From assembly GCF_036186745.1 (NCBI RefSeq), contig NZ_CP108086.1:2232001-2296000 (forward strand): a stretch of DNA of 64,000 bases. Direction: 5' to 3'. How positions within the stretch are numbered: position 1 is the stretch's first letter; every line of letters starts with the position of its first letter. Below the pieces are notes generated by a model. That model was not told where the DNA came from, made no database searches, and saw only the letters and a list, made by a program, of their open reading frames with translations. This DNA is from Microbispora hainanensis. Lineage in GTDB: Bacteria; Actinomycetota; Actinomycetes; Streptosporangiales; Streptosporangiaceae. Positions 5,855 through 63,014 of the stretch are shown here, piece by piece. The translations under genes and the position numbers were made by a program.

Positions 5855-6265
5855 GAGGTCCTCCGGTGGGGGATTCGACGCAGGGGGACGCGCACGGCGG
5901 TGCGGCGGGAAAGCGGGCACGGCGCCGTGGCTGCGTCGTAACGCTACGGATCGGGTGGTCCGAGATCGTCACCGCTCAGTGGACATTCGCCGGTAGCTCG
6001 CACGAGGGACGAACGCGAGGACGAGCGCGGCGTACGAGCGCGGCGTACGAGCGGGGACGAGCGCGGCGGACGAGCACGGACGAGCGCGGCGGACAATCAG
6101 GAACGAACGCGGCGCGCGAGCGGGGACGAGCACGGACGAACGCGGACGAACGCGGCGGACGATCAGGGACGAGCGGGGACACGCGGCGGGCACGCGGCGG
6201 AAGCTCCCCCGCGTCGTGCCGCTCAGCGGCTCCACCGCGGCCCGGGCGTTGGCGCGGGCCGCGCC
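5855..6265. repeat. Gene-free stretch with degenerate GACGAGCGCGGCG repeats
   Basis: No convincing gene lies in this 411-bp stretch. From about 5998 to 6200 the sequence is built of degenerate copies of GACGAGCGCGGCG and GACGAACGCGGCG, some fused to TACGAGCGCGGCG, with irregular spacing of 11-16 bp. The array lies downstream of the HD-domain gene and upstream of the lipoprotein start, both minus strand. Confidence 0.75.
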
Positions 6266-6895
6266 CTACTCCGGCCAGGGGGAGCCGAGGATCGTGTCGA
6301 CGAAGTTGCCCCGCCGATAGCCGGGCACATAGCGTTCGAGCACGTCGGCCTTGACGTTGCCGAACGTCGTCTCGGGCTTGGGTGCGATGCCCTCGGTGAA
6401 CGCCCGCAGGATCGCCTCCTTGAACCCCGGGCGCGGGTGGAGGGCGGTGATCTCGGCCCGCTGGGCGTCGTCGAGATCGTGATAGCCGATGCCGAGCACG
6501 TCATACTCCACGCCCGCGGTGACCAGCGCCACCTCCGGCTCCATGAACTCGGGGATACCGGGAGTGGTGTGCAGGGCGATCGCGGTCCACACCCGGCGGA
6601 TGCTGTCCTCCGGCACCCCGCGTCGCCGCAGGAAGCCGCGGGCGGCATCGGCGCTGTCCACCTCGAAGCGCCGCCCGCTGCCGCGATGCTCCTCGTTGAG
6701 CCCCAGGTCGTGGAACATCGCGCCGATGTAGAGCAGCTCCGGGTCGAAGCTCAGGTCCCGTCGCCGCCCCAGCAGGCTGCCGAAGAAGTAGACACGGCGC
6801 GAATGGTGATAGATCAGGTCGCTGGTGACGTCACGGACGAACTCGGTGGCCTCCGTCGCGAGCTTGGTGTCAGGCACGGTCTGCTCGATCGTCAT
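6266..6895 (-). CDS. HD-domain metal-dependent hydrolase
   Basis: A 209-residue single-domain protein. The HD-superfamily metal ligands can be traced: SRRVYFFG after HH near residue 30, MFHDLGLNEEHRG near residue 63, and ALHTTPGIPEF near residue 108. This arrangement resembles the cyanamide-hydratase-like/HD phosphohydrolase group. The substrate is not predictable. A strong ribosome site (GGAGGGGGAGCG) precedes the ATG. Its neighbours are unrelated. Confidence 0.85.
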   Translation of the reverse strand: MTIEQTVPDTKLATEATEFVRDVTSDLIYHHSRRVYFFGSLLGRRRDLSFDPELLYIGAMFHDLGLNEEHRGSGRRFEVDSADAARGFLRRRGVPEDSIRRVWTAIALHTTPGIPEFMEPEVALVTAGVEYDVLGIGYHDLDDAQRAEITALHPRPGFKEAILRAFTEGIAPKPETTFGNVKADVLERYVPGYRRGNFVDTILGSPWPE

Positions 6896-7013
6896 CGTTT
6901 CGCTCCCCCTCCGGCTCGGGCTCCACTGTCACCCGCGGCGGCCGAGGAACGTCGCAGCAACACGTCTTGCCCCGTCCATGGACCGGTCACGGAGGGTCAG
7001 CGTGATCGGCCGG

Positions 7014-7991
7014 TCAGTCGGAGGGCCGGGGTCCTGCCGCGCGGCGGAGCCGGTTGGCGATCGCGAGTCCCAGCCCCTCCTCCACCGGCAGGGACGCGAT
7101 GATCAGGTCGCATCCTCGCTGGTCGAGCTCGCGGAGGAAGCCGTACAGCTCGCGCGCGTACGCGTCCGGCGAGGCGGGGACCTCCACCACGGCGTGCGCC
7201 TTCACCTCGGCGTCGGCGAAAGCGGGGGGAAGGAAGACGCCCACCCGGTGTCCCAGCTCCTGGGCGAGCTCCGCTTCGGCGACGACCTTCTCTGGCTCGA
7301 CGAGCACGACCCGCGCACGTGGCGCGTAGTGCGACGGATGCTGGCCGGGCACCCGTACGCGGCTCGTGGAGGGGACCGCGAGCGGGCGGCCCAGCGCCGC
7401 TTCGAGGTCCTCGCGCGTCACCCCGCCGGGCCGCAGGATGGTCGGGACGTCGCTCGTGGCGTCGACGATGGTGGACTCGACGCCGACCCCGCAGGCGCCG
7501 CCGTCCAGCACGAAGTCGACGGCGTCGCCGAGCTCCGTACGGACGTGGTCCGCGGTCGTGGGGCTGACCGAGCCGAAGCGGTTGGCGGAGGGGGCCGCGA
7601 CACCGCCGCCGAAGGCCTCCAGCAACGCGAGCGCGACAGGATGGTCGGGCACGCGTATGGCCACCGTCTCCAGGCCGCCCGTCGTTTCGAGGGGCACCCG
7701 GGGGCCGCGCCGCAGGACCAGCGTGAGCGGCCCCGGCCAGAAGCGTTCGGCCAGCAGGCGTGCCGTCTCGGGCACGTCCTCGACCCAGTCGCCCAGGTGC
7801 TCCGCGCCGCCGATGTGGACGATCAGCGGGTGGGTGGGCGGACGCCCCTTGACCTGGAAGACGCGCGCGACGGCGGCGGGGTTCTCGGCGTCGGCGCCCA
7901 GACCATAGACGGTCTCGGTCGGGAGGGCCACGAGGCCTCCGGCGCGCAGCACGGCCGCCGCCTTCTCTATGTCACCGGTTCCTGCCGTCAC
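7014..7991 (-). CDS. sua5: L-threonylcarbamoyladenylate synthase, Sua5 type
   Basis: The enzyme makes threonylcarbamoyl-AMP from threonine, bicarbonate and ATP, the first step of t6A37 modification of ANN-decoding tRNAs. The YrdC core (about residues 1-200) shows GLVALPTETVYGLGADA, KGRPPTHPLIVHI, FWPGPLTLVL and APSANRFGSVSPT. The following 120 residues (SHYAPRARVVLVEP onwards) are the Sua5 extension absent from short TsaC. GTG 7991 is chosen because AAGGA lies at the right distance; the 45 codons upstream include an NSER-NSER repeat encoded by a 12-bp duplication and look like leader DNA. Confidence 0.92.
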   Translation of the reverse strand: MTAGTGDIEKAAAVLRAGGLVALPTETVYGLGADAENPAAVARVFQVKGRPPTHPLIVHIGGAEHLGDWVEDVPETARLLAERFWPGPLTLVLRRGPRVPLETTGGLETVAIRVPDHPVALALLEAFGGGVAAPSANRFGSVSPTTADHVRTELGDAVDFVLDGGACGVGVESTIVDATSDVPTILRPGGVTREDLEAALGRPLAVPSTSRVRVPGQHPSHYAPRARVVLVEPEKVVAEAELAQELGHRVGVFLPPAFADAEVKAHAVVEVPASPDAYARELYGFLRELDQRGCDLIIASLPVEEGLGLAIANRLRRAAGPRPSD

Positions 7992-8320
7992 CCTCGGGAT
8001 CCTTTCACTGTTCCGCTCACTGTTCCGCTCTCCGCGCGCCGGGTTCTCGTCGCGGCGGTGCCGTGTGCGCGGCGGCGCGGGGGAAACGCCGCCAGGACGT
8101 GTCCAGCTCAGCGTAGAACCCCACAAGTCCTACCTCGGTCGTGCCGTCAGGCCGCCGATGAGCATTCCGTACGGATCCATCCGGGTTCGGGGGGCCGGAT
8201 ATCCTGCTCCGAACGTGTCACCCGACTTTTGCGGGACCCGCCGCGTGGCAGTAGCACGGCAACGGCATGGCGGGGTCCGGCGCGGGTGGGCCGGGCTCGG
8301 CGTGAACGAGAGGGTGTCAA
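7992..8320. other. Divergent intergenic region
   Basis: This 329-bp gap separates the Sua5 gene (minus) from the large signalling gene (plus). It contains a perfect 12-bp tandem duplication CACTGTTCCGCT near 8006-8030 and a short GGCGGC/GCCGCC stem at 8071-8093. I see no convincing promoter hexamers or gene. Confidence 0.4.
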
Positions 8321-16798: not shown

Positions 16799-16824
16799 GG
16801 ATGACGTCAGAGGATGACGTCAGA
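16799..16824. promoter_or_regulatory. Tandem 13-bp repeat with TGACGTCA cores
   Basis: GGATGACGTCAGA occurs twice head-to-tail with no spacer. Each copy holds the eight-base palindrome TGACGTCA. The pair ends 40 bp before the preferred start of the ROK gene, a position suited to an autoregulatory operator. Confidence 0.5.
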
Positions 16825-16863
16825 GGCGTCCTCGGATGAGAAACTTGGCAGGTGGAGACTTCG

Positions 16864-19585
<2,722 letters not shown>

Positions 19586-20117
19586 CCATGCCACCGACTG
19601 ATCACGCCACTGACTGATCACAGGACCGACCGACCACGGCTCAGGCCGGTACGGCCGGACTTGACGTCCTCCTCGATGCGTATGCGGGACACCGAGCCCG
19701 CACCCGCATCAGGAGGACGTCGTGGCGTTCGGGATCTTCGAGGACTCACCACGACTGGGGCGCCCGGTGCCGCCGGACGCCCCTTCGCCGTACGGGGACC
19801 GGGTGCGAGACATCCGGCAGCCGGGCCCGGGGGCGTGCGGGATCCCGGGGCCCGGATCAGCCGGATCGGGAACGTCCGGCAGTCCGGTCGGGGACGAGCC
19901 CCGGAAGCACCGGGGAAGCCAGGTGGGGACGTGCCGGGCCGGGAACGTCTGGCAGTCTGGCCGGGGACGAGCCCCGGAAGCACCGGGGAAGCCAGGTGGG
20001 GACGTGCCGGGCCGGGAACGGCCGGGCGCCTCTTCGCCGTACGGAGACCGGGAGCTGGGAGCGGCCGGGTGCCCCTTCGACTTACGGAAACCGGGCCGGG
20101 GACACCGGGGAGCCGGG
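19586..20117. repeat. Gene-poor spacer after argG with several tandem repeats
   Basis: The 532-bp spacer starts with two copies of a 16-bp unit ending ACTGATCAC (about 19590-19621). A 57-base hairpin follows (19664-19720). A 73-bp unit then occurs twice in tandem (19868-19940 and 19941-20013, three differences). Three dispersed copies of CTTCGCCGTACGGGGACC-like sequence lie near 19782, 20031 and 20075. A frame starting GTG 19722 behind AGGAGG is open but its product is repeat-derived, so no gene is called. Confidence 0.65.
19664..19720 (+). terminator. Long hairpin after argG that buries an AGGAGG sequence
   Basis: ACGTCCTCCTCGATGCG (19664-19680) pairs with CGCATCAGGAGGACGT (19705-19720) with one bulged base. 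Inside, TGCGGG (19683-19688) pairs with CCCGCA (19697-19702). It may terminate argG. Its right arm contains AGGAGG five bases before GTG 19722, so a translation-masking structure is an alternative. Confidence 0.5.
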
Positions 20118-21708: not shown

Positions 21709-22047
21709 GTGGCACAGCGGATCGAGGACTACGGCCTGCTCGACGACCTTTGGCGGGCGACCTGCACACGGCGGCCCCGGCATGGCGGCCTCCACACGGC
21801 GGCCCGGACACGACGGCCCTTGCGCGGCGACCCGGACACGGCGGCCTCCACACGGCGGCCTCCACACGGCGGCCCTTGCGCGGCGGCCCGGACACGGCGG
21901 CCCTTGTGCGGCGGCCTGCACACGGCCGCCGGACACGGCGAGCCGCGCAGGGCGGCCCTGATGGGACGCGATGAGTCGATCAACCTACGCTGGTTCCGAG
22001 GCGGCTGCCGGGCACGTCGCGCACGGCCGCGAACACGTTGGAGGTGA
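21709..22047 (+). pseudogene. Remnant of a GH15 glycosidase gene, N-terminus only, broken by a repeat expansion
   Basis: GTG 21709, behind GGAGGGGG, encodes VAQRIEDYGLLDDL, nearly the standard GH15 start (MAQRIEDYALIGDL). At 21960-21990 the same frame gives AALMGRDESIN, matching the next family block AALVGRDGSID. Between them about 180 bp of 14-bp repeats have been inserted. A second frame across the repeat start reads GDLHTAA, exactly the missing link of the family sequence, so the unit GCACACGGCGGCCC appears copied from these codons. After RDESIN the rest of the roughly 600-codon gene is gone. GH15 genes often precede this type of glucose dehydrogenase, which starts seven bases downstream. 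Confidence 0.75.
21768..21946. repeat. 14-bp tandem repeat array
   Basis: About twelve copies of a 14-bp unit of the form nnnRCRCGGCGGCC, for example TCCACACGGCGGCC and CTTGCGCGGCGGCC. As 14 is not a multiple of three, the frame shifts with each unit, yet no stop codon arises. The 227 bp between the HxlR stop and the GTG at 21709 show nothing recognisable. Confidence 0.85.
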
Positions 22048-26451: not shown

Positions 26452-27048
26452 TCAGCGGCGGAGCCGGGTCACGGTGGCGTACAGGGCCAGGGAGAGGGCC
26501 GCCCAGCTCAGGGTGGCGGTCGTGAGGGACAGCCACAGCGGCCAGGCGGTCACGGTGAGCGCGACGACGACGGCGAAGCCGATCAGGCCGATGGCGCCGA
26601 AGGTCGCACCCCCCACGTCCTGTACGGCCTGGCGCACGCCCTCCTCCTTGGCGACGAGGGTGACGCTCGCCAGCAGGATCGCCGGGAACGCGAGGAAGAG
26701 CCCGCCCGCGCGCGGGCCGGCCAGCACGGACACCACCCCGGCGAGCGCCGACACTCCCACGCCGAACGCGAACCGGACCGCCCAGTCCCGCTTGGGCGGC
26801 CGCCGCAGCTCGCTGAGCCGCAGCCGCACCTCTTGCTCGTTCTCAGGAGGCCGCTCGTCTTCAGCAGGTCGCTCGTCTTCACAAGGTCGCTCGTCTTCAG
26901 CAGGTCGCCGGCCTTCGTAAGGTCGCCCGTCGCCGGCAACCGGGCCGTCATCGGCCATCCGGCCGTCCGCGCCGTCATCGGAGGGCCGCTCGTCATCCGA
27001 AGACCGCCGGTCGCCGGGTGCCGGGCCGTCGTCTCGGCGGGCGCTCAT
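26452..27048 (-). CDS. DUF3147-like membrane protein with a repetitive acidic N-terminal tail
   Basis: A 198-residue protein. The first 90 residues are hydrophilic and repetitive, including units AEDERP, CEDERP, AEDERP encoded by 18-bp repeats at about 26850-26905. The C-terminal half has four membrane segments (FGVGVSALAGVVSVLAGPRA, FLAFPAILLASVTLVAKEEG) related to DUF3147. Its ATG overlaps the stop of the preceding DUF3147 gene (ATGA). The two related membrane proteins may form a heteromer; function unknown. Confidence 0.75.
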   Translation of the reverse strand: MSARRDDGPAPGDRRSSDDERPSDDGADGRMADDGPVAGDGRPYEGRRPAEDERPCEDERPAEDERPPENEQEVRLRLSELRRPPKRDWAVRFAFGVGVSALAGVVSVLAGPRAGGLFLAFPAILLASVTLVAKEEGVRQAVQDVGGATFGAIGLIGFAVVVALTVTAWPLWLSLTTATLSWAALSLALYATVTRLRR

Positions 27049-31323: not shown

Positions 31324-31641
31324 ATGACCACCACCGCGCTGCCCACGTCCGCGCCGCCCGTCGCCGCGCGGACCATCACTGCGCCGCCCCCGCCCGTCCC
31401 GGCCACCGTTGCCGCGCCGCCCGTTGCCGCGCCGCCCGTTGCCGCGCCGCCCGTTGCCGCGCCGGCCGAGGCGTCGGCACGTGCCCTGCCGGTCGAGCTC
31501 ATCGACGGCCCGGGAGGGAGGCTCTACCTGCTGCCCTTCGCACCGCTCACCCCCGACGACTGCGAGGCCTTGTCCGTGCTCCTCGCCGCCCGCGCCGCCG
31601 CCGTACGCAGGAAGGAGTCCGCCACGCCCCAGCCCGAGTAG
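31324..31641 (+). CDS. Hypothetical protein with PPVAA repeats
   Basis: A 105-residue protein. Residues 10-50 are Ala/Pro/Val repeats (four 15-bp units encoding AAPPV at 31411-31467), and the C-terminal half LIDGPGGRLYLLPFAPLTPD is a short conserved-looking domain of unknown function ending in a basic helix. The ATG lacks a strong ribosome site. It lies 180 bp after kdpE on the same strand; a link to potassium control is unproven. Confidence 0.5.
   Translation: MTTTALPTSAPPVAARTITAPPPPVPATVAAPPVAAPPVAAPPVAAPAEASARALPVELIDGPGGRLYLLPFAPLTPDDCEALSVLLAARAAAVRRKESATPQPE
31411..31467 (+). repeat. 15-bp tandem repeat, four copies, in frame
   Basis: GCCGCGCCGCCCGTT occurs three times exactly plus one partial copy, encoding AAPPV units inside the hypothetical protein. 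Confidence 0.9.
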
Positions 31642-31758: not shown

Positions 31759-32961
31759 ATGAGCGCACAGCACGAAGCCGGGGCGGCGACCACCCACCGA
31801 GTGGTGATCCTCGGGGCGGGATACGCGGGCCTGTCCGCGGCGATCCAGCTCGGGACGAGGGTCAAGCCGGGCGGCAACGTTCGGGTGACCCTGGTGAACG
31901 CGCAGGAGCGGTTCACCGAGCGGCTGCGGCTGCACATGACGGCGAGCGGGCAGCGGCTCGCCGAGCTGAGCATCCCCGAGCTGCTGGAGGGCACGGCCGC
32001 GCACTTCGAGCGCGGGTGGGTGACGGCGGTGGACGTGAACGCGAAGACCGTGCGGATCGACGACGAACGCGTCCTGCCCTACGACACGCTCGTGTACGCG
32101 CTGGGCGGCGTGGCCGACACGGCGGCGGTCCCGGGAGTCGAGGACCACGCCTACACCCTGAACACCGCCCAGGACGCCGAGGTGCTGGCCGACCGGCTGT
32201 CGGGGCTCGGCAGCGGCACGGTGGTGGTCGTCGGCAGCGGGCTGACCGGTGTCGAGTCGGCCGCGGAGATCGCCGAGCGGCACCCGGAGCTGCGCGTCGT
32301 GCTGCTGGGCCGCGGCGAACCCGGTGCGGCCATGAACCCGAAGGCCAGGGCTTATGTGCGGGCCGCGCTCGACCGCCTGAAGGTGCAGGTGCGCAGCGGA
32401 GTCGAGGTGGTGAAGGTGCTGCCCGGCATGGTCAAGCTGGCCGGCGGGGAGAGCGTGCCGGCCGACGCCGTCCTGTGGACGAGCGGCACGCGGGTGTCGC
32501 CGCTGGCGTCCGCCGCCGGGCTGACCGTCGACGACCACGGCCGGGTCGTCACCGACGCCGCGCTGCGGTCGGTGTCCCACCCCGAGGTGTACGCCGTGGG
32601 TGACGCGGCGGCGATCCGTCAGGGCTACGGCGTCATGCACGGCACCTGCCAGGGCGGCATGCCGACCGGTGTGCACGCCGCGCTGTCGATCCTCCGGACG
32701 CTGAAGGGCAAGCGGCCCAAGCCGTTCCGCTTCGGCTATTACCACACGCCGGTCAGCCTGGGCCGGAACGACGCGGTCGTGCAGTTCACCCACCCCGACG
32801 ACAGCCCCCGGCGGCTGTATCTGACGGGCCGCGTCGCCATGCGATACAAGGAGACGGTGACCGCAGCACCATGGCCCACGTGGGGCCGCATGAAGAAGAT
32901 GCCCGCCTCGGGCGCGTTCTGGCCCCGCGGTGGCCGCTTCACCCGCGTGCGGGAGGCGTGA
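31759..32961 (+). CDS. NAD(P)/FAD-dependent oxidoreductase, NDH-2-like
   Basis: A 400-residue flavoprotein. FAD-binding VVILGAGYAGLSAAIQLGTR lies near residue 14, the NAD-binding motif VVVVGSGLTGVESAAEIAER near residue 160, and the C-terminal FAD contact EVYAVGDAAAIRQGYG near residue 280. The overall build is that of type II NADH dehydrogenases or related disulfide-type reductases, but there is no CxxC redox pair. AGGAG precedes ATG 31759. Its stop overlaps the start of an ECF41 sigma factor; oxidoreductases are among the classic partners of that group, so it is probably the sigma factor's main target. Confidence 0.88.
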   Translation: MSAQHEAGAATTHRVVILGAGYAGLSAAIQLGTRVKPGGNVRVTLVNAQERFTERLRLHMTASGQRLAELSIPELLEGTAAHFERGWVTAVDVNAKTVRIDDERVLPYDTLVYALGGVADTAAVPGVEDHAYTLNTAQDAEVLADRLSGLGSGTVVVVGSGLTGVESAAEIAERHPELRVVLLGRGEPGAAMNPKARAYVRAALDRLKVQVRSGVEVVKVLPGMVKLAGGESVPADAVLWTSGTRVSPLASAAGLTVDDHGRVVTDAALRSVSHPEVYAVGDAAAIRQGYGVMHGTCQGGMPTGVHAALSILRTLKGKRPKPFRFGYYHTPVSLGRNDAVVQFTHPDDSPRRLYLTGRVAMRYKETVTAAPWPTWGRMKKMPASGAFWPRGGRFTRVREA

Positions 32962-35380: not shown

Positions 35381-38048
35381 GCCGCTCCTCGATGAGTAGG
35401 TCCCAGTCGGTGATCACCGGTGCGAGTTCACCGCGCAGCCACAGCGGGTGCTGGTCACGCCAATGGGGGTCGCCGGGCACGCCGCTCGCGCCGAACGGCA
35501 CGATCCACAGGCTCCCGTCGCGCCGCGCGAGGTCCCACACGTAGCGCGCCGCCGGGCCCCGGGCGAAGTGATGGGTGACGCCCGGCACGCTCGACGTGGA
35601 CAGCACGCAGTCGTGGTCCCCCGGCACGCCCGCCTCCCCCGGCACCGCGTCGTCCACAGAGCCCTGGCTTTCCACACGGCCCGTGTCCACAGAGCCCGCG
35701 CCTTCCACAGAACCCGCGCATGCGTCGTCCACAGAAGCCGGGTCGTCCACACGGCTCGTGTCCACCGGGCTCGCGCCTTCCACAGAACCCGCGCATGCGT
35801 CGTCCACAGAAGCCGGGTCGTCCACACGGCCCGTGTCCACCGGGCTCGCGCCTTCCACAGAACCCGCGCATGCGTTGTCCACAGAGCCTGGGTTGTCCAC
35901 AGAAGACTGCAGGGCGCGCCAGGGGGCGAGGCGGTGCAGGTCGCCCCACCGGACGCCGGCGAGCTCGTCGCGTGCCGCCACCTCCTCCAGCGCCGCCCGG
36001 GCCAGCTCCGCAAGGGCCGCCCGGTCCAGCCCGGGCAGCACGTCGGTCGTCAGCAGGCTCTCCAGCGCGTACGCGACACGGGGGGTCAGCGCGAGCCACG
36101 GCCGGAAGACCTCGGGCGCCTCCGCGTCCACCCCGGCCAGGCATGCCAGGGCGGGGTGGGCCGCCAGGCGGCGCACCACCTCGGCGCGGACCTCCGCGTA
36201 CGCCGCCGCGTCGATGCTGGCGACGTCCATGCGCCGGTCCCAGGCCGCCAGCCGGTCCCGCAGGCGTACGGCCTCGGGACTGAGCCCGCCCAGGCCGTCC
36301 AGCCCGGCCAGTCCGTCCAGCCCGGCCAGTCCGTCCAGCCCGGCCTGCCCGCGCAGCAGGTCGAGGAGAGGGCCGGCGCTCGGCAGCAGGGTGTCGGTGT
36401 GGACGGACGCCATGTCCGCGGCCGACCAGCGCGGCGAACCGTCGAGCAGCCGCCGGATCCGGTCGGCGCGGTGGCGCGGTGCGAACTCGACGCCGAGCGG
36501 CGCGGCGATCCCCCGCTCGTTGGCCATGACGGTGATGCCGGAGATCTCGCGGCGGGGCAGCGGCGCGTAGTCGCCGCTCCACTCGTGGCCGGGCTCCCAG
36601 GCGGGCACGGCCCGCAGCCCGTTGTCCGGATGACGGACGGGCACCACCCCGGCGACGCGGTGCAGGAGGCCGCCGGAGGTGTCGGCGGCGAGCACGACGT
36701 TGACGGGCTCGGCCCAGTGGTCGAGCGCCCGGTCCACGTCGGCCACCGTCTTCGCCCGCAGCAGCGACGGCAGCGCCGCGAACCCCAGGTCATGGCGCAC
36801 CCGGGGCGGATAGCGCAGGCTCACCGCCTCCCACACACCGCCCGGAAAGCCACGCGGAAAGCCACGCGCGTGATCCGGACCTTCCGCGGTCGCCGGTCCC
36901 CCCTCGCCCACTTCCGGCCCGGGCCCGGCGTGCATGACGACCGGGCCGCGCTCGGTCTCGACGACCTCGACCTCGACCGGGGCCTCCCCCGCCACCTCGA
37001 TGGTCTCGACGTGGGCGGCGCAGGGACGCCAGCCGTCCGGTCCCAGCGCCTCGACGCCGCCGTCCCGCCGCCGGAGCCGCTCGCGGTAGAGGTCCTGGTA
37101 GTCGGCCATGGCGTTGGTGATCGCCCAGGCGACCGAGCCGGCGTGCCCGAAATGGGCGATGCCCGGAACGCCTGGCACGGCCAGCCCGATCACGTCGAAC
37201 TCGGGACAGGCCAGACGAATCTGCTGATAGAAGCCGGGGTCCTCGATGAAGCGATGAGGATCGCCCGCGATCAGAGCCGCGCCGGTGGTGGTGCGATCGG
37301 CGGGGACCAGCCAGCCGTTGCTCCCGCCGCTGCCCGGCCCGTCGGCCGCGAACACCGCGACCGCCTCGGGACCCAGCCGCTCGGCCACCGCCGCGCGCCA
37401 CAGCTTGGCCGGAAAATGCGCGAAGAGGATGTGGTGCGACAGCCAGATCGCCATCGGCGTCCACGGCTCCCACCGGCCCGGCGTGAGCCCCGCGGCCGTC
37501 CCCTCCCGCGACGCCGCGAACTCCGGAGCCCGGCGTGCTCCCGCGGGCATCTCCTCCCGCGCGCACTCCTGAGCCTGGCGCGTTCCCGCGGCCGTCTCCT
37601 CCCGCGCGCACTCCTGAGCCTGGCGCGTTCCCGCGGCCGTCTCCTCCCGCGCGGACTCCGGATTCCGGCGCGTTCCCGCGGCCGTCCCCTCCCGTGACGC
37701 GGTGAACTCGGGAGCCCGGCGTACCCCCGCAGCAAGCCCCGCGTTGACGCCGTCCACGTAGGCGCGCACCCAGCGCGCCGTGTCGTCGTCCAGGGCGTCC
37801 AGGGCGCGCAGGCAGTGCTCGGCGGTGTCCGCCAGCCGGGCCTGCCGGGCGAAGCGGTCCCATGCGACGGCGTCCGGACCGAGGATCGCCGCCGACGTGC
37901 CGGTCGCCCGGCGCCGCTCGACCTCGATCTGCCAGGCCCGGTCGATCGCCGTGACACGTCCCTGCGCGAAGGCCAGCTCGTACGGATCGCCCGCGCGCAG
38001 GTGGGGAATGCCCCAGGCGTCCCGATAGAGCCCGTTCGGCGTGGTCAT
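35370..38048 (-). CDS. Penicillin-acylase-family Ntn hydrolase (DesG-like) with two repeat insertions
   Basis: An 892-residue Ntn hydrolase. The alpha part starts DAWGIPHLRAGDPYELAFAQ and reaches WVRAYVDGVNAGL; autoprocessing before Ser243 in SGGSNGWLVPADRTTTG would create the beta chain, and IAGDPHRFIEDPGFYQQIRL plus AHFGHAGSVAWAITN are family blocks. No signal peptide is seen. Two in-frame repeat tracts swell the protein: 45-bp units at 37508-37715 in the alpha chain and 75-bp units at 35641-35905 near the C-terminus, plus GLDGLA repeats at 36292-36346. In the siderophore operon it may cleave or exchange amide-linked acyl groups. Confidence 0.88.
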   Translation of the reverse strand: MTTPNGLYRDAWGIPHLRAGDPYELAFAQGRVTAIDRAWQIEVERRRATGTSAAILGPDAVAWDRFARQARLADTAEHCLRALDALDDDTARWVRAYVDGVNAGLAAGVRRAPEFTASREGTAAGTRRNPESAREETAAGTRQAQECAREETAAGTRQAQECAREEMPAGARRAPEFAASREGTAAGLTPGRWEPWTPMAIWLSHHILFAHFPAKLWRAAVAERLGPEAVAVFAADGPGSGGSNGWLVPADRTTTGAALIAGDPHRFIEDPGFYQQIRLACPEFDVIGLAVPGVPGIAHFGHAGSVAWAITNAMADYQDLYRERLRRRDGGVEALGPDGWRPCAAHVETIEVAGEAPVEVEVVETERGPVVMHAGPGPEVGEGGPATAEGPDHARGFPRGFPGGVWEAVSLRYPPRVRHDLGFAALPSLLRAKTVADVDRALDHWAEPVNVVLAADTSGGLLHRVAGVVPVRHPDNGLRAVPAWEPGHEWSGDYAPLPRREISGITVMANERGIAAPLGVEFAPRHRADRIRRLLDGSPRWSAADMASVHTDTLLPSAGPLLDLLRGQAGLDGLAGLDGLAGLDGLGGLSPEAVRLRDRLAAWDRRMDVASIDAAAYAEVRAEVVRRLAAHPALACLAGVDAEAPEVFRPWLALTPRVAYALESLLTTDVLPGLDRAALAELARAALEEVAARDELAGVRWGDLHRLAPWRALQSSVDNPGSVDNACAGSVEGASPVDTGRVDDPASVDDACAGSVEGASPVDTSRVDDPASVDDACAGSVEGAGSVDTGRVESQGSVDDAVPGEAGVPGDHDCVLSTSSVPGVTHHFARGPAARYVWDLARRDGSLWIVPFGASGVPGDPHWRDQHPLWLRGELAPVITDWDLLIEERHDD
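35641..35905. repeat. 75-bp in-frame repeat with phased DnaA-box-like 9-mers
   Basis: Three near-identical 75-bp units (for example beginning 35716, 35791, 35866). On the plus strand they create TCGTCCACA at 35650, 35725, 35743, 35800 and 35818, and TTGTCCACA at 35875 and 35893, all in one orientation with spacing 18 or 57 bp. The actinomycete DnaA box is TTGTCCACA. Confidence 0.85.
36292..36346. repeat. 18-bp in-frame repeat, three copies
   Basis: AGTCCGTCCAGCCCGGCC repeated; encodes GLDGLA units in the acylase. Confidence 0.85.
37508..37715. repeat. 45-bp in-frame repeat in the acylase alpha chain
   Basis: Units of 15 residues (REETAAGTRQAQECA and variants) with exact 45-bp spacing, for example GAGCCTGGCGCG at 37571 and 37616. 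Located in the loop between YVDGVNAGL and WEPWTPM, where the family normally has a short turn. Confidence 0.88.
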
Positions 38049-45004: not shown

Positions 45005-45573
45005 GTGACGTCCTGTTCCGCCGCACCGACGGGCAGGTCGGCGAGCTCGCCGTACGCCGCCTCGATCCGGAGGCCGACGCGGTGACCGTGCACCTGTGGG
45101 TCACCCATCCCAAGGCCGTGTTCTGGATGATGCAGGACGCCGACGTCGCCCGCGTGGAGAAGGAGTACCGCGAGATCGTCGAGCACCCGCACCGCGACGC
45201 GTACCTGGGGCTGGTGAACGGCCGCCCGGCCTTCCTGGCCGAGCGCTACGACCCCGCCCGGGTCGAGCTGGCGGGCCTCTACGACGCCGAGGAGGGCGAC
45301 GTCGGCATGCACTTCCTGTGCGCGCCCGCCGAGACCCCGATCCACGGCTTCACCCTCGCCGTGATCACCACGGTCATGGAGCTGCTGTTCGCCGATCCCG
45401 CGACCCGGCGGGTGGTGGTCGAGCCCGACGTACGCAACACGGCGGTGCACGCGCTCAACGCGGCCGTCGGCTTCGAGGTCGTCGGAACGATCGCCAAGCC
45501 GGAGAAGGACGCCCTGCTGAGCGTCTGCACCCGGGAGAGGTTCCGCGCGGCGGCCCGGGAGGTGCACGCGTGA
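45001..45573 (+). CDS. desC: N-hydroxycadaverine acyltransferase DesC
   Basis: A 190-residue GNAT enzyme that attaches succinyl, acetyl or other acyl groups to N-hydroxycadaverine. [40 protein letters not shown] and [20 protein letters not shown] follow the AlcB/DesC pattern. ATGA overlap with desB and GTGA overlap with desD couple the four genes. Confidence 0.93.
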
Positions 45574-47930: not shown

Positions 47931-48143
47931 CGCCGCGGCCGGAAGGCGGTGCAGGCCGCCACCTAAACTGGGACGCACTCGTGCGGGATCCGCTCCCCTT
48001 GGCGACCGTCGTACGGACCCGTGATCAGGCCGGGCGGCGGGCCCGGCCGCAAACGGGCCGCGAAACGGGCCGCGAAACGGGCCGCGAAACGGGCGCAGAA
48101 CGAACGCGGGGCGGGTGGCAGGCCGGGTGGTGAGGAGGACGGT
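47931..48143. repeat. Spacer before crcB with a 12-bp tandem repeat
   Basis: The rest of the roughly 400-bp gap before crcB. GGGCCGCGAAAC occurs about four times in tandem at 48051-48097, giving KRAA units if translated. No fluoride-riboswitch fold (the crcB motif) could be recognised before crcB. Confidence 0.7.
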
Positions 48144-49392: not shown

Positions 49393-49705
49393 CCCGACCC
49401 GGCCGCGCGCTTCCCTGAGACCGGCCGCGCTGTTTCCCCAAGACCGCCCGGTCGTGCTGCTCCCCCTGAGACCGGCCGCGCTCCCCCTAAGACTGGCCGG
49501 CCGCGTTGCTTCCTGAGACCGGCCGCGTTGCTTCCTGAGACCGGCCGCGTTGCTTCCTGAGACCGGCCGCGTTGCTTTCCCGGGACCGCCCGGCCGTGCT
49601 CCTTGCCCGGGACGGCCCCCGGCCGCCCCGCGTGTGGAGGAGCGGGGCGGCGCGTCTCGGACGGCCGACGGCGTCAGCGGTGCCGGGTCATCGCGACGAT
49701 GGGGA
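49393..49705. repeat. Spacer built of 22-bp tandem repeats
   Basis: GCGTTGCTTCCTGAGACCGGCC recurs at 49503, 49525 and 49547, with degenerate copies from about 49405 to 49640. No gene is present. It lies between convergent genes (crcB and the hydrolase) and several copies could form G-C stems, so it may also end transcription. Confidence 0.85.
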
Positions 49706-51635: not shown

Positions 51636-51938
51636 TCAGCCGCAGTAGCGCAGCACCGCGGGCTTGCCGCAGGCCAGGGTCCCCGAGCGGGTGCCGCCCT
51701 GCGCGTCCAGGCCGAGGCCGAGGCCGAGGTCGACGTTCACGTCGAGGGCGACGTTGAGGCCGAGTCCCAGGCCGACGTTCGCGTCGGCCTTGGCGCCGAG
51801 GCCCACCGCGGCGGTGGCGGTGGCGGGCGTGGTGGCCTTCGGCGCGTCACCGCCGCAGCCCGCGTAGGCGGGCGCGGCGGCGAGGATGCCCGCACAGGTC
51901 AGGGCGGCCAGGGACATAAGACGAATAGGGCGGTGCAT
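51636..51938 (-). CDS. Small secreted protein with an alternating beta-type repeat
   Basis: A 100-residue precursor: signal peptide MHRPIRLMSLAALTCAGILA ending PAYA, mature start GCGGDAPK. Residues 45-80 alternate strictly between aliphatic and small/polar residues (ANVGLGLGLNVALDVNVDLG), which favours an exposed beta-strand or amyloid. Cys residues near both ends of the mature chain (GCGG, LACG, RYCG) could form disulfides. GAGGAAT precedes the ATG. It resembles chaplin or rodlin logic but not their sequence. Function unknown. Confidence 0.7.
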   Translation of the reverse strand: MHRPIRLMSLAALTCAGILAAAPAYAGCGGDAPKATTPATATAAVGLGAKADANVGLGLGLNVALDVNVDLGLGLGLDAQGGTRSGTLACGKPAVLRYCG

Positions 51939-54819: not shown

Positions 54820-55803
54820 TCAGTGGCCGGGATGGGCGTCTTCGAGACCATGCCCCGCCGCCGTGCCGGTGGACCGTACGGTGAACGCGGCGGTGTGCAC
54901 GGTGCCGCCGTGCTTGAAGTCGAGGAACAGGCGGTAGTCGCCGCCGCTCGGTGCCGACGCGGCGAAGGTCACCCCGGCCGCCGTCGTGTCCTCCTCGGGA
55001 TGCACGTGCAGGTAGGCCAGGTCGCCCGCACGGATCGCGACGAGGTGGCCCTTGGCGCCCAGGTAGGGCTCGAGATCGCCGACCGGCGTGCCGTCCTTGC
55101 TCACCGTGAACACGAGCTTAGTCACCTGGCCCGCCGTGAGGTCGCCGGCCAGTGTCACCGTGTATCCGTCCACCTGGGCCGTACGTTCCACCGGCGGCAG
55201 CGGCCGGGGCCGGTAGTCGCCGGGGACGAACAGGTCGGCGCCGAGCGTCAGGTCGGGCCCGCCCTCGGGGGCGAAGTCCGCGAACATCCGATAGGCGCCG
55301 GCGTCGGGCAGCGTCAGCGGCACCGACCAGACCCCGTCACCGGCCTCCTCCGGGTGCAGGTGCCAGAAGTCGCCGAGGTCCCTGGAGACCACGATGAAGT
55401 GCAGCTTCTTCTCGTGCTTCACCTGATAGCGGGTCACCGGCGCGCCGTCGGGCCCGTTGACGGTGAAGCGGAAGTCGGTGGCCTTCCCCCGCTTGAGCGT
55501 CGTGGTCAGGGGGACCAGCGTGTAACCGTCCTGGGAGATCTGCAGGCCCGGGGGCGCGCTCGCCACCTCTGAGGTCTGCTCGTGAGCGTGGCCGGGCGCG
55601 GAGCCAGTGTGGTCCGCGGAGCCAGTGTGGTCCGCGGGGCCTGTGGAGTCCGCGGGGCCTGTGGGATCCGTATGGCCGTGGGCGGGGCGCGGGGTCGCGC
55701 GCGGGGGCTCACCGGAGCCCAGCGCGGTCCCCGCGCCCAGCGCCGCCACGAAGATCACGGCGAGGCCCGCGGCGTACGCGCCGAGCCGGGCCGGGGTGTT
55801 CAC
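54820..55803 (-). CDS. Secreted protein with duplicated His-x-His-Pro domains, copper operon
   Basis: A 327-residue exported protein: N-terminal hydrophobic segment ([20 protein letters not shown]) and a His-rich linker with repeats ADHTGS (18-bp units around 55600-55640). Two tandem beta-type domains follow, each with a matching segment: [12 protein letters not shown] and [10 protein letters not shown]. The repeated His-x-His-Pro-Glu-Glu could bind copper outside the membrane. Not assigned to a named family with confidence. Starts at GTG 55803, overlapping the copZ stop, and ends 29 bp before copA. Confidence 0.75.
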
Positions 55804-57951: not shown

Positions 57952-59529
57952 CTATCGACTGGACAGGCCGTACAAAACCCCTGAAGAGGCGCGGACGAAT
58001 ACCCCCTCGGCGTACGGCAGGCGTCCGAGCGACCCGGCCGGGAGCGGCACCATGCCCCTGAGCGCCTCCGGCACCATCCCCTTGGGCGCCTCCGGCACCA
58101 TCCCCTTGGGCGTCTCCGGCACCATCCCCTTGGGCGCCTCCGGCGCCTCGGTCAGCAGGGCCGAGAAGGCGAGACGGCGTCCGGTGCGTCCCTGGTGCGA
58201 GACGTAGTCGTCCGATCCTGCGAACGTCACCTCTCCCACCGGGGCGAGCCGCGCCAGCGCCGCCTCCACGCTCTCGCCCGGCCGTACGACCGTGGCGGGC
58301 AGGCGGTCGGTCTCGTCGTCGGAGTGGACGAGCACCGCGCCGTCGAGCCGGGCGACCAGGCACACCGTGATCTCCTCGAACCCGGCGCGTACGGCCTCGG
58401 CCGCCAGATCGGCGGGGCGGGGGACGTCCCAGCCGTGCAGGGAGAAGAGCGGCGATCCGGAGACGACAGGGGCGGCGTCTGCAACGGCGTCGATGGCCGT
58501 GTTGTCCGCCGTGTTGTCCGCCGTGTTGTCCGCCACGGGAAGGCCCGGCGGGCGCGTGGCGTCGAGGGCCGCGTCGTGTGCCGCGTTGTTCGCTGCGGGA
58601 AGGCCCGGCGGGGGCGCGGCGTCGATGGTGGCGTCGTGTGCGGCGTTGTTCGCCGTGGGGAGGCCCGGCGGGCGCGCGGCGAGTGCCCGCCGCACGGCCT
58701 CGACGCCCGCCCGTGAGTACGGCACGGTCCGCTCGGGCAGCCGGTCGAACGGAAACCAGGCCAGCTCGGCGCACTTGTGCGGCTCGGCGTTGACCGGTGT
58801 GCCGGTGATGGAGTGCGGCATGAGGAACATCCCGATCCGTGCCGTCCCACCCGCATTGTGGTGATGCATGACGTGGACGACCTCGCAGCCGTCCACCTCG
58901 ATGCCGAGCTCCTCGCGGGCCTCGCGGACGGCGGCGTCCACCACCGACTCCCCCTCCTCCAGATGCCCGGACGGCATGATCTGCCACTCGCCGTCCGCAT
59001 AGCCGGTGCCCTGGCGGCGGCCGAGCAGCACCTTCTCTCCATCGGTGAGCAGCAGGTGCACGTCCACGACCGGCCGATAGCGGCCCGGGGCGTACGTCGC
59101 GGCGTCGAGCAGCTTGGGCAGGGTCGCGGCGTTCGCGGAGATGTACTCCCCCAGCTCGGGCGGGACCATGTTCAGCGTGCGCGCCTCCTCCGGGCGCACC
59201 CGCCGCACCTCGTGCAGGCCGATGTCCGGTTCGAGGAACTCCGGGCCGCTGCGGCGCGACAGGTCGAGCGACACCAGCCGGCAGGCGAAGACCGTGCTCA
59301 GGCGGCCGGGCTCGACAAGGGTGAACACGTGCAGCGCCGGCCCCGCCGTCGCGCCGAGCTCCTCGTCGAGCTCGCGGCGCAGCGCCGCCTCGGGATCGGC
59401 GTCGGTGTCCTCCACCCCGCCGCCCGGCGTGATCCAGTACGGCTCCCGCCCCGCCCGCACACGCCGGAACAGGACGATGTCGTCGCCGTCGAACAGGATG
59501 GCCCGGACGCTGTGCCGTACGGAGGTCAT
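57952..59529 (-). CDS. Tandem NUDIX hydrolase with repeat-filled linkers
   Basis: About 525 residues. The first NUDIX domain holds GGGVEDTDADPEAALRRELD followed by EELGA; the second holds SGHLEEGESVVDAAVREARE followed by ELGIE, so both Nudix boxes are intact. A third, degenerate NUDIX-like region follows (VLVHSDDETDRLPATVVRPG). Between domains 2 and 3 are 60-bp repeats (58487-58680; PPGLPAANNAAHDAALDA), and near the C-terminus 24-bp repeats (58048-58146; EAPKGMVP). Substrates are unknown. ATG 59529 or 59538 could be the start; neither has a strong site. Confidence 0.85.
   Translation of the reverse strand: MTSVRHSVRAILFDGDDIVLFRRVRAGREPYWITPGGGVEDTDADPEAALRRELDEELGATAGPALHVFTLVEPGRLSTVFACRLVSLDLSRRSGPEFLEPDIGLHEVRRVRPEEARTLNMVPPELGEYISANAATLPKLLDAATYAPGRYRPVVDVHLLLTDGEKVLLGRRQGTGYADGEWQIMPSGHLEEGESVVDAAVREAREELGIEVDGCEVVHVMHHHNAGGTARIGMFLMPHSITGTPVNAEPHKCAELAWFPFDRLPERTVPYSRAGVEAVRRALAARPPGLPTANNAAHDATIDAAPPPGLPAANNAAHDAALDATRPPGLPVADNTADNTADNTAIDAVADAAPVVSGSPLFSLHGWDVPRPADLAAEAVRAGFEEITVCLVARLDGAVLVHSDDETDRLPATVVRPGESVEAALARLAPVGEVTFAGSDDYVSHQGRTGRRLAFSALLTEAPEAPKGMVPETPKGMVPEAPKGMVPEALRGMVPLPAGSLGRLPYAEGVFVRASSGVLYGLSSR
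58048..58146. repeat. 24-bp in-frame repeat, four copies
   Basis: CTTGGGCGCCTCCGGCACCA-type units at 58081, 58105 and 58129, encoding EAPKGMVP in the NUDIX protein. Confidence 0.9.
58487..58680. repeat. 60-bp and 12-bp in-frame repeats
   Basis: GGGAAGGCCCGGCGGG-type starts at 58537, 58597 and 58657 (60-bp spacing). GTTGTCCGCCGT is repeated three times at 58501-58535. All in frame in the NUDIX linker. Confidence 0.9.
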
Positions 59530-61816: not shown

Positions 61817-61879
61817 GCCCGGCAGGCGCGGCCGTCACCGGTCGAGCATCTCGCGGCCGAGCGGCCGGCGTCCGCTGCC

Positions 61880-62029
61880 GACCCGCTGTGGTCATGGCCG
61901 AGTGGCCGGGTTCGTGGTCGGGTGGCTACGTTCGCGGCTGACCGGGCTGGTGGTTGCGGCCAGGTGGCTACGTTCGCGGCCGACCGGCTGATGGTCGCGG
62001 GCGAGTGGTCACCGCTTGCGGCCGGTCGG
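61880..62029. repeat. Degenerate repeats in a spacer
   Basis: GTGGCTACGTTCGCGGC occurs at about 61922 and 61967 (45-bp spacing), with related GTTGCGGCCAGG and CGCTTGCGGCCG copies. They end at the 3' end of the methyltransferase gene. Confidence 0.75.
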
Positions 62030-62851
62030 TCAACGCTTGCGGCCGACGCCGCCGACCGACCAGACCGTGTCTTTCGGTGGTCGCAGCTCGCCGGGCTCCG
62101 GTCGCCATTCGGGCACCTGGACGAGGCCGGGCTCCACCATTTCCAGGTCGCCGAACAGCGGCAGGATCTCGGCCTGGGTGGGCAGCCGCAGGCGGCCGTC
62201 GTCCTTGACCGCCCATTCGCTGGCGAACAGCAGGGCGAGCCTGTCCGTCACCTCCGGCCGGAGGTCACAGATCGCGTGGCTGATGACCATATAACTGCCG
62301 GGCGCGATCGCCTCGCGCAGCCGTGCGGTGATGGACATCGTGAGGTCGTCGTCGTTGATCGCCGCCAGCACCGAGACGAGCAGGACGCCCACGGGCTCGC
62401 CGAGGTCGACGAGCTCACGCAGCCGCGGATGGGTGAGGATCGAGCCGGGGTCGCGTACGTCGCCGCGGATCACCGCGACGCGTTCGTCGTCCTCCACCAG
62501 CGCCTGGCCGTGGCTGACCACGACCGGGTCGTTGTCCACGTAGACCACGCGGGCGTCGGGAGCGCACTCCTGTGCGATCTCGTGCACGTTGCCCTGGGTC
62601 GGCAGGCCGCAGCCGATGTCGACGAACTGGCGGATCCCGGCCGCGGCCAGGAACCGTACGGCCCTGCGCAGGAACTTCCGCCCCTCGCGGCACATCAGGG
62701 GGAGCTCCGGCGCGATCAGCAGCGCGGCTTCCGCCGCCTCGCGGTCCGCGGCGAAGTTGTCCTTCCCGCCGAGCCAGTAGTCGTAGACCCGGGCCTCGTT
62801 CGGGACGGACGGGTCGAAACCCACAGGCTCGACCGGGGGGAAACCCGGCAT
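62030..62851 (-). CDS. SAM-dependent methyltransferase, DUF574/Methyltransf_19 family
   Basis: A 273-residue protein: PNEARVYDYWLGGKDNFAAD, RQFVDIGCGLPTQGNVHEIA (SAM-binding loop) and ARVVYVDNDPVVVSHGQALV. This family is strongly expanded in sporulating actinomycetes; its substrates are unknown. CGGAGGATC precedes ATG 62851. Confidence 0.93.
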   Translation of the reverse strand: MPGFPPVEPVGFDPSVPNEARVYDYWLGGKDNFAADREAAEAALLIAPELPLMCREGRKFLRRAVRFLAAAGIRQFVDIGCGLPTQGNVHEIAQECAPDARVVYVDNDPVVVSHGQALVEDDERVAVIRGDVRDPGSILTHPRLRELVDLGEPVGVLLVSVLAAINDDDLTMSITARLREAIAPGSYMVISHAICDLRPEVTDRLALLFASEWAVKDDGRLRLPTQAEILPLFGDLEMVEPGLVQVPEWRPEPGELRPPKDTVWSVGGVGRKR

Positions 62852-62942
62852 GATCCTCCGTTCAGGCCTGATCACCGATCTTACCGGTGCAAGACGGGCC
62901 TTGATGAGGATCCGTACGCGCCTGCGAGCGGGCCTTCTCCGG

Positions 62943-63014
62943 AGGTGCTTTCCGGGCGGAGTTTCCCGGCTGGAGGGTGTTGCCAGGCTGGAGGGTGCTT
63001 CCCGGCTGGAGGGA
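62943..63014. repeat. 18-bp tandem repeat upstream of the methyltransferase gene
   Basis: TGCTTCCCGGCTGGAGGG-type units, three and a half copies, between the ATPase stop and the methyltransferase promoter. Confidence 0.8.

What the first reader, a model, noticed from the sequence alone, without database searches (positions are those of the whole stretch)
5998..63014. Tandem-repeat expansion throughout the window, in spacers and in frame inside genes
More than fifteen tracts with units of 12, 13, 14, 15, 16, 18, 22, 24, 45, 60, 73 and 75 bp occur in 64 kb. Inside genes, unit length is always a multiple of three and the tract falls in linkers: the acylase (three tracts), tandem NUDIX (two), the ECF41 N-terminus, DUF3147, the copper secreted protein and the PPVAA protein. 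Spacer tracts (14, 16, 22, 73 bp) ignore the reading frame. The units are unrelated in sequence, so this looks like a general amplification process filtered by selection, not one spreading element. That would make it a lineage-wide generator of linker diversity.
Basis: partly seen in the sequence, partly recalled or inferred. Interest (0 to 1): 0.75.

Follow-up and report, generated by a model that had tools for sequence, protein, structure and literature searches.

The report
Lineage-elevated tandem-repeat growth in Microbispora
This soil bacterium's chromosome is growing many short head-to-tail DNA repeats of unrelated sequence, several times more than other actinobacteria sampled, mostly between genes and otherwise in floppy protein segments, which makes it a natural case for asking what controls small DNA duplications.

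Summary
The window holds 20 tandem arrays with TRF score >=70 and period >=9 (15 with >=100); a Markov-3 null of ten times its length gave 2 and 0. The genome is an 8.8 Mb Microbispora chromosome. The excess is genome-wide and shared in part by its sister M. hainanensis (G012). Exact arrays per 100 kb of spacer: G000 53, G012 29, G001 22, seven other Microbispora 10, Streptomyces loci 15. Of 45 G000 arrays with a located G012 counterpart, 34 differ in length. In-gene periods are multiples of three in 67 of 67; in spacers, 52 of 95. Units are unrelated between sites.

Most likely mechanism: slippage or template-switch duplication seeded by short direct repeats, running faster in this lineage and filtered by purifying selection. 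'Generator of linker diversity' is only partly supported: against congeners the excess is larger in spacers than in genes (against Streptomyces loci it is the reverse). The cause of the faster rate is unknown; NucS, PolA/FEN, Ku, DinB-type and SSB families are found in all 15 Microbispora genomes searched.

The parts
6006..6175 (.). Spacer array, period 23 (13/10 bp sub-periods), 7.4 copies
   Evidence: interval 22 bp in G012 against 170 here (right flank extrapolated 53 bp)
8005..8030 (.). Spacer, exact 12-bp duplication (2.2 copies)
   Evidence: G012 has exactly one unit less, 14 vs 26 bp
16799..16826 (.). Spacer, exact 13-bp duplication
   Evidence: 15 bp in G012 and G008
19576..19638 (.). 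16-bp array x3.9, overlapping the last 10 bases of g16
   Evidence: relatives mapped only with long extrapolation
19860..20025 (.). Spacer array, 73-bp unit x2.3, with a 43-bp array after it (20014-20095)
   Evidence: intervals in G012 and G007 much shorter but poorly anchored; one of four outgroups shows aligned letters of equal length there
21756..21958 (.). Spacer array, 14-bp unit with 28, 56 and 70-bp higher-order periods
   Evidence: lies where G012 and the one outgroup aligned hold a gene-sized stretch absent here
26835..26931 (-). 18/36-bp array at or just upstream of the DUF3147 gene start (gene model ambiguous)
   Evidence: 84 bp vs 48 in G012; negative intervals in G004, G007, G008, which have other 12-18 bp arrays nearby
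31406..31468 (+). 15-bp array in g27 (31324-31641), PPVAA repeats
   Evidence: G012 is longer here (123 bp); G003, G006, G008, G013 have 15-bp arrays with partly similar units, G004, G007, G009 none
32961..33124 (+). 18/36/54-bp array in the N-terminus of an ECF sigma factor (Sigma70_r2, r4_2; SnoaL_2 below its cut-off), codons 2-56, with in-frame ATG/GTG codons along the tract
   Evidence: 164 bp vs 119 (G012), 38 (G006) and -4 to 3 bp in six others
35647..35901 (-). 75-bp array (15/18-bp sub-periods) in penicillin-amidase-family acylase, aa 716-801
   Evidence: 255 bp vs 15-63 bp in 10 relatives; gap region in ortholog alignment
36283..36345 (-). 18-bp array in acylase, aa 568-589
   Evidence: 63 vs 27 (G012, G003) vs 8-9 bp in eight others
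37515..37694 (-). 45-bp array in acylase, aa 119-178
   Evidence: other species carry different arrays at the same site, G012 none
48045..48094 (.). 12-bp array x4.2 in spacer
   Evidence: 5 bp in G012, 12 in G008, 34 in G003; G012 and G003 have other 12-bp units there
49399..49618 (.). 22/27-bp array in spacer
   Evidence: alignment at 49393 shows 304 bp in G000, none in G012 and 27 bp in the one outgroup
51711..51803 (-). 42-bp array x2.2 in g48 (no Pfam match)
   Evidence: 93 bp here, 60-93 in seven relatives
55597..55670 (-). 18-bp array in g51 (YtkA-like match below cut-off), aa 45-69
   Evidence: 74 vs 56 (G012), 23 (G004), 50 (G009) bp
58045..58144 (-). 24-bp array in the C-terminal part of a NUDIX protein, aa 465-498
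   Evidence: 100 bp vs 43 in G012 vs exactly 19 in seven others
58520..58681 (-). 60-bp array (with a 12-bp array at 58496-58534) just after the best NUDIX stretch (155-272), aa 286-340
   Evidence: 162 vs 108 (G012), 96 (G003), -6 to -42 in six others
61921..62000 (.). 42-bp array x1.9 in spacer
   Evidence: relatives mapped only to implausibly long intervals (395-466 bp)
62968..63013 (.). 18-bp array x2.6 in spacer
   Evidence: G003 longer (130), four others shorter

Best explanation
The tracts are ordinary minisatellite/VNTR-type arrays made at an unusually high rate in one Microbispora lineage (this genome and, to a lesser degree, M. hainanensis). A 10-100 bp segment is duplicated by replication slippage or template switching, often seeded by a short chance direct repeat. 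The duplicated state then slips further in whole units, and shorter units become parts of longer higher-order units. The process seems to hit any sequence. Selection removes nearly all products that shift a reading frame or disrupt a folded domain, so arrays pile up in spacers, and in genes mainly as multiples of three in disordered loops, termini and linkers. SHOWN: density excess, length differences between sister genomes, modulo-three contrast, unrelated units, disorder-type composition. INFERRED: slippage as the mechanism (from a modest microhomology signal, whole-unit steps and nested periods) and a raised mutation rate rather than weaker selection. UNKNOWN: what raises the rate.
For: Excess: TRF >=100 per 100 kb is 23.4 in the window, 12.8 in a 400-kb sample, 17.2 in a 180-kb stretch; 3.7 in the complete genome G001; 2.0-6.0 in four draft congeners, 7.5 in G005 (80 kb); 2.0 in 53 Streptomyces/Kitasatospora loci. 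Exact arrays with non-multiple-of-three periods in spacers: 38 in 123 kb vs 13/102 (G012), 9/78 (G001), 0/127 (seven others), 6/110 (Streptomyces). Copy-number change: 34 of 45 G000 arrays differ in length from G012 (28 longer, 6 shorter, 11 same). Polarised insertions of >=9 bp: 12 on the G000 branch, 4 on G012. Whole-unit steps: 33 of 82 differences within 0.1 unit of an integer, 20% expected if uniform. Microhomology at near-single-copy alleles: mean longest repeat 4.21 vs null 2.87, n=29, 1 of 1000. Filter: 67/67 in-gene periods multiples of three; TOP-IDP 0.212 vs null mean 0.116, max 0.146. Weaker selection is not indicated: codon positions 1+2 to position 3 changes 140:229 on the G000 branch and 104:175 on G012.
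Against: In the matched ~163-174 kb region the sister G012 has as many exact arrays (36 vs 34), so G000 alone is not the outlier. Arrays found in G012 are longer there in 17 and shorter in 15 of 41; the contrast 28 vs 17 gives p=0.135. Some counterpart intervals are poorly anchored: several are negative and one differs by 26 units. Most length differences are not clean integer multiples (49 of 82; some loci are counted from both sides). The microhomology excess is about 1.3 bp, and the comparison allele is itself ~6% diverged. Of polarised events >=9 bp, 21 were ambiguous. Five candidate repair families show no loss. All relatives except G001 are drafts, and complete G001 has about twice the exact spacer rate of the seven drafts (21.8 vs 10.2). 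Against Streptomyces loci the gene excess (8.0) exceeds the spacer excess (3.7), which a pure spacer-neutral picture does not predict.
Confidence: 0.72

Rival explanations
1. The mutation rate is ordinary; arrays accumulate because purifying selection on spacers and linkers is weaker in this lineage (for example a small effective population).
For: Against congeners the excess is largest in spacers; no loss is seen in five repair families.
Against: Coding constraint looks the same on the two sister branches (positions 1+2 vs 3: 140:229 and 104:175). Exact, hence young, arrays are raised. Spacer arrays >=70 per 100 kb are 23-37 in G003, G004, G007 and G009 against 87-120 here.
Confidence: 0.15
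2. The arrays are selected as a device for diversifying protein linkers.
For: In-gene arrays recur at the same acylase site in several species with different units, the acylase has grown to 892 aa from 737-738 in two congeners, and genes show an eight-fold exact-array excess over Streptomyces loci.
Against: The gene-level excess over G012 and G001 is not significant (1.08 and 1.51) while that in spacers is. Recurrence at tolerant sites is expected without positive selection; the sites are also gap-rich in relatives.
Confidence: 0.07
3. Artefact: sister genomes are short-read drafts that collapse or omit arrays, so the excess in one complete genome is technical.
For: All relatives except G001 are drafts, and complete G001 has about twice the exact spacer rate of the seven drafts.
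Against: G000 still exceeds complete G001 in spacers (ratio 2.45, p=0.0006). Exact arrays of 30-60 bp should be shorter than reads (inference). Relatives keep contiguous single-unit alleles, e.g. 19 bp in seven genomes at 58045. G012 is a draft of 250 contigs yet dense.
Confidence: 0.05
4. A specific oxidative-damage repair defect raises duplication: one Fpg/Nei paralog is interrupted by a ~376-bp gap in G000 and a different ~271-bp gap in G012.
For: Only three Fpg/Nei-type hits in G000, G001, G002, G005 and G007, and a truncated fourth in G012 (gaps). Exact-array density of five sampled genomes lacking it is 16.5, 10.7, 8.8, 7.9 and 3.5 per 100 kb against 2.9-6.0 in seven that have it. C>A changes 55 vs 21 on the G000 vs G012 branch.
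Against: Post hoc; Mann-Whitney p=0.074. G007 lacks the gene and is not dense; G002, G006 and G014 were not used. G012 has also lost it, yet has the lower C>A count. Three other Fpg/Nei-type hits remain in G000.
Confidence: 0.05
5. One repeat family or element has spread over the genome, as MIRU-like elements do.
For: Twelve pairs of arrays share related units, above a null mean of 2.2 and maximum of 4.
Against: That is 12 of 16,836 pairs and 21 of 184 arrays in any cluster; by eye the listed clusters are mostly low-complexity units.
Confidence: 0.01

Closest known systems
Tandem repeats of Borg elements (PMC9879509; abstract, first parts of section 2.1 and of the Discussion read)
   Same: Fast evolving; formed independently at each site with unique units; both intergenic and in ORFs; ORF units divisible by three; in-ORF repeats mostly disordered; close relatives often lack them.
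   Different: Here a bacterial chromosome at ~72% GC; copies are mostly imperfect and nested. By the Borg criterion (perfect, >=50 nt, >=3 units) G000 has 10 in 644 kb, about 1.6 per 100 kb, against an average of 46 per 828,655 bp in the paper's Table 1.
Mycobacterial VNTR/MIRU loci (PMC2734929; passages read)
   Same: Actinobacterial tandem arrays, variable in copy number between strains; the paper links one intergenic array's length to expression of the fpg gene.
   Different: MIRUs are described there as 40-100 bp repetitive sequences at 41 locations; here units at different sites are unrelated and the comparison is between species.
Eukaryotic GC-rich minisatellites (recalled, no call)
   Same: Unit sizes of 10-100 bp, slight strand asymmetry of units (mean |GC skew| 0.220 vs 0.185 null), higher-order periods.
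   Different: No meiotic or recombinational driver is known or tested here.

Membership tests
VNTR / minisatellite arrays | Head-to-tail copies of a unit longer than about 9 bp, beyond chance | tested here: met
   20 arrays >=70 in the window vs 2 in 640 kb of Markov-3 sequence
VNTR / minisatellite arrays | Copy number differs between related genomes | tested here: met
   34 of 45 arrays differ in length between G000 and G012
VNTR / minisatellite arrays | Copy number varies within a species or population | not testable with these tools
   Only one genome per species is held
Borg-type tandem repeats | Units in ORFs divisible by three, spacer units not so restricted | tested here: met
   67/67 vs 52/95 at TRF >=70; 126/136 in genes at >=50
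Borg-type tandem repeats | Perfect copies | tested here: not met
   The 20 window arrays >=70 have 72-97% matches; 10 perfect regions of >=50 nt and >=3 units in 644 kb
Borg-type tandem repeats | In-ORF repeats in disordered regions | tested here: met
   By composition only: TOP-IDP 0.212 vs null max 0.146; structure prediction could not be run
Borg-type tandem repeats | Carried on the extrachromosomal Borg element | tested here: not met
   The window lies in an 8.8 Mb single-contig bacterial genome
MIRU-like dispersed element | Arrays at many loci share one unit family | tested here: not met
   12 related pairs of 16,836; 21 of 184 arrays in any cluster
Mismatch-repair (NucS) mutator | Loss of NucS and excess of transitions | tested here: not met
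   NucS_C found in 15 of 15 genomes; transitions 171 vs 165 on the two branches

The most novel reading that the evidence does not exclude
This Microbispora lineage carries a heritable tandem-duplication mutator: a defect or variant that specifically raises 10-100 bp duplications genome-wide without raising transitions, giving a bacterial chromosome a Borg-like repeat landscape. Its cause may lie in a replication or base-excision component, for instance the Nei paralog that is broken differently in G000 and G012.
Probability: 0.35. Interest if true: 0.75.

Novelty: new member of a known kind. Interest (0 to 1): 0.5.

Why it matters
Why some genomes fill with minisatellite-type arrays while close relatives do not is an open question in bacteria (my view, no survey made). 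Here are sister species with orthologous single-unit and expanded alleles, spacers that act as a nearly neutral record, and genes that show the filter. That makes both the mutation step and the selection step measurable. It also warns annotators that protein length in this genus can differ by more than 150 aa between congeners, largely through recent arrays (acylase 892 vs 737-738 aa).

Tried and rejected
Rejected: one spreading element; chance; short-read artefact as the main cause, though a partial effect stays possible; NucS-type mutator. Simple loss of PolA/FEN, Ku, DinB-type or SSB families is not seen; all are found in 15 of 15 genomes. HhH-GPD counts vary (2 in G000, G005, G010, G014; 3-4 in the rest) and were not followed.

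Led nowhere or weak: array-level GC skew was first compared with windows of array length, which is the wrong null; redone at unit level the excess is small though 0 of 500 nulls reach it. A transversion excess on the G000 branch (216 vs 126; p) may be partly residual misalignment and is unexplained. The Fpg/Nei correlation is post hoc.

Limits: genes were called with my own codon-usage caller, trained on G000 and G001, so some 'spacer' arrays with periods divisible by three are probably missed coding sequence; all 13 spacer exact arrays of the seven other Microbispora have such periods. In some searches and 60 loci under 5 kb were left out, 7 of 20 G012 sample loci and 1 of 8 G003 loci fell away. 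In one search arrays with score below 60 were dropped; the microhomology test also dropped alleles of 1.3 units or more and intervals below -20. One search used arrays with periods 12-150 only. The units of the five relatives at acylase site 37515 were compared with the G000 unit, not tested against each other with a null (they are 58-73% alike). Structure prediction of the acylase was never run.

Full report
WHAT WAS CHECKED. After merging overlapping rows there are 29 arrays with score >=50, 20 with >=70, 15 with >=100 and 9 with >=150 (period >=9). Ten Markov-3 simulations of the window, 640 kb in all, give 32, 2, 0 and 0. Chance is excluded.

WHERE IT IS. The window is G000:C1:2232001-2296000 of a single-contig genome of 8,801,664 bases. 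So the genus is Microbispora, inferred from same-genus handles. Aligned parts of the window are about 94% identical to G012 and 85-92% to ten other congeners.

IS THE DENSITY UNUSUAL? TRF >=100 per 100 kb: window 23.4; 20 x 20 kb sample of the same genome 12.8; 180-kb stretch 17.2; complete congener G001 3.7; G003, G004, G007 and G009 2.0, 6.0, 2.0 and 3.0; G005 7.5 over 80 kb; G012 6.7 in scattered loci and 11.8 over contig C1. 53 Streptomyces/Kitasatospora loci around the orthologous decarboxylase gene give 2.0, 16 Micromonospora loci 3.7. Some other loci are high too: single ~21-kb loci of Dactylosporangium fulvum and Nonomuraea cavernae reach 18.6, so high density is not unique to Microbispora. 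GC contents are all about 0.68-0.73.

GENES VERSUS SPACERS. With my gene caller, spacer arrays (>=70) per 100 kb of spacer are 120 (window), 96 and 87 in G000, against 31, 58 and 15 in three G012 sets, 27 and 43 in G001, and 11-68 in the other congeners; Streptomyces loci have 30 and Micromonospora 29. Gene arrays are 18, 10 and 20 per 100 kb in G000 against 1.6-15 elsewhere. For exact arrays (>=2 units, >=30 nt) the spacer rates are 53.4 (G000), 29.4 (G012), 21.8 (G001), 10.2 (seven other Microbispora) and 14.6 (Streptomyces); the gene rates are 7.7, 7.1, 5.1, 3.1 and 1.0. In G000, 66 of 106 exact arrays are in spacers, which are 123 of 644 kb. Against its congeners the excess is larger in spacers; against Streptomyces loci it is larger in genes (8.0 vs 3.7). 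Exact spacer arrays whose period is not a multiple of three, which are unlikely to be missed coding repeats, number 38 in 123 kb of G000 spacer, 13 in 102 kb of G012, 9 in 78 kb of G001, 0 in 127 kb of the seven others and 6 in 110 kb of Streptomyces (p = 0.0046, 0.0064, 2e-12, 5e-6).

FRAME FILTER. At TRF >=70, in-gene periods are multiples of three in 67 of 67 arrays over 644 kb of G000; spacers 52 of 95; 26 straddling arrays set aside. At >=50 it is 126 of 136 in genes. G001 has 26 of 28 at >=70. In-gene array residues (2,620) are enriched in S, P, T, N, G and Q and poor in aromatic residues, L, I and C; mean TOP-IDP (scale values recalled) 0.212 against 0.116 for random placement in the same proteins, maximum 0.146 of 500. 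In the window the strong in-gene arrays of the sigma factor, NUDIX and YtkA-like proteins lie outside the best Pfam stretches reported. The acylase Pfam match spans the whole protein, but its three long arrays fall in gap-rich stretches of the alignment with five orthologs.

HISTORY OF THE TRACTS. At 58045 the interval is 100 bp here, 43 in G012 and exactly 19 in seven others, that is, four-unit, two-unit and single-unit alleles of a 24-bp unit. At 36283 it is 63, 27 (G012, G003) and 8-9 bp in eight others. At 35647 it is 255 bp against 15-63 in ten relatives. At 31406 G012 is longer (123 vs 63), and at 62968 G003 is (130 vs 46). The acylase is 892 aa here, 737-738 in two congeners and 684-731 in one Nonomuraea and two Streptomyces records; the M. 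hainanensis ORF is frame-shifted and runs to 923. At the acylase site 37515 the relatives G003, G004, G008, G009 and G013 carry arrays of their own (12, 15 or 30-bp units), whose units do not exceed the 95th percentile of random genomic words in likeness to the G000 unit (G008's lies on it). G011 also has an array there, not tested; G012 and G010 have none. The same slot is filled repeatedly with different material.

SISTER COMPARISON. In a syntenic stretch, 45 of 63 G000 arrays (>=70) had an ortholog in G012: 28 longer in G000, 11 the same, 6 shorter. Started from G012, 41 of 52 had an ortholog: 17 longer in G012, 9 the same, 15 shorter. In the window 12 of 20 had one: 9, 2, 1; from G012, 7 of 10: 2, 1, 4. 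Because each list favours its own genome, the fair contrast is 28 vs 17 (p=0.135), or 37 vs 19 with the window (p=0.022). Exact arrays are 34 vs 36 in that stretch and 10 vs 5 in the window part. So G012 shares the trait. In 36 aligned chunks (45 kb) polarised events of >=9 bp were: insertions 12 on G000 and 4 on G012; deletions 14 (12 of them pieces of one gene-sized gap near 21.7-22.0 kb) and 5; 21 ambiguous.

MECHANISM. Length differences lie within 0.1 unit of an integer in 33 of 82 cases, against 20% if uniform. At 29 near-single-copy alleles the longest direct repeat at the unit distance averages 4.21 bp against 2.87 at random sites, reached in 1 of 1000 draws. Many tracts show nested periods: 14/28/56/70, 18/36/54, 15/30, 12/60 and 15-18 within 75. 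These fit slippage or template switching seeded at short repeats, with later slippage of longer units. They do not prove it. Units at different sites are unrelated: 12 of 16,836 pairs against a null mean of 2.2. A 276-bp x 6 in-gene array has the same length in both sisters, so at least that long domain-type repeat is stable.

WHY THIS LINEAGE? Polarised substitutions in gap-masked columns: transitions 171 (G000) vs 165 (G012), transversions 216 vs 126; positions 1+2 to position 3, 140:229 and 104:175. So there is no transition-type mutator and no sign of weaker coding constraint, but an unexplained transversion excess. NucS, PolA/FEN, Ku, IMS and SSB families are found in 15 of 15 genomes. 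One Fpg/Nei paralog, 274 aa in G008, is interrupted by a ~376-bp gap in G000 and a different ~271-bp gap in G012, and nearly all of it is missing from G007. Exact-array densities of five genomes lacking it are 16.5, 10.7, 8.8, 7.9 and 3.5, of seven having it 2.9-6.0; p=0.074, post hoc, with G007 as a counter-example. I treat this as a lead only.

KNOWN WORK. The nearest description is that of tandem repeats in Borg elements (PMC9879509: abstract and first parts of sections 2.1 and 3 read): independent, fast-evolving, intergenic and in-frame, disordered. By its perfect-repeat criterion this genome has 10 in 644 kb, below Borgs. Mycobacterial VNTRs (PMC2734929, passages) are another actinobacterial case. 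Searches for 'Microbispora' with 'tandem repeat' (4 papers, listing only) and for arrays or slippage in Actinobacteria or bacteria (listings only) showed no title describing this; that covers only the open-licence library and the rows listed.

VERDICT. The process reading is supported, the adaptive 'linker generator' reading is not shown, and the cause of the lineage effect is open.

Noticed in passing
G000:C1:1338973-1338974 (ortholog of L255 1602-2426, minus): A Fpg/Nei-type DNA glycosylase paralog is interrupted by a ~376-bp gap here, by a different ~271-bp gap in G012 (L256), and nearly all missing in G007: repeated loss in the genus.
   Followed up: partly
L146 3047-5818 (M. hainanensis), window position 35397: An 11-bp insertion near the end of the M. 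hainanensis acylase appears to shift the frame; its ORF runs on to 923 aa with a different C-terminus.
   Followed up: no
window 21749-22006 and 23768: G012 and the one outgroup aligned there hold gene-sized stretches absent from this genome; at the first site a 14-bp array fills the spacer instead.
   Followed up: no
window 32958-33124: The array at the start of the ECF sigma factor repeats in-frame ATG/GTG codons, so the translation start could shift along the tract.
   Followed up: no
window 35370-47429: The acylase sits beside an ABC/FecCD uptake cluster and a run from a decarboxylase to an IucA/IucC-type synthetase, resembling a hydroxamate siderophore (desferrioxamine-type, recalled) locus.
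   Followed up: no
L246 15577-17239: A 276-bp x 6 in-gene array of identical length in G000 and G012 (1663 bp), unlike the short arrays.
   Followed up: no
G000 branch, aligned window chunks: C>A changes 55 vs 21 and C>G 139 vs 93 relative to the G012 branch, transitions equal; residual misalignment not excluded.
   Followed up: partly
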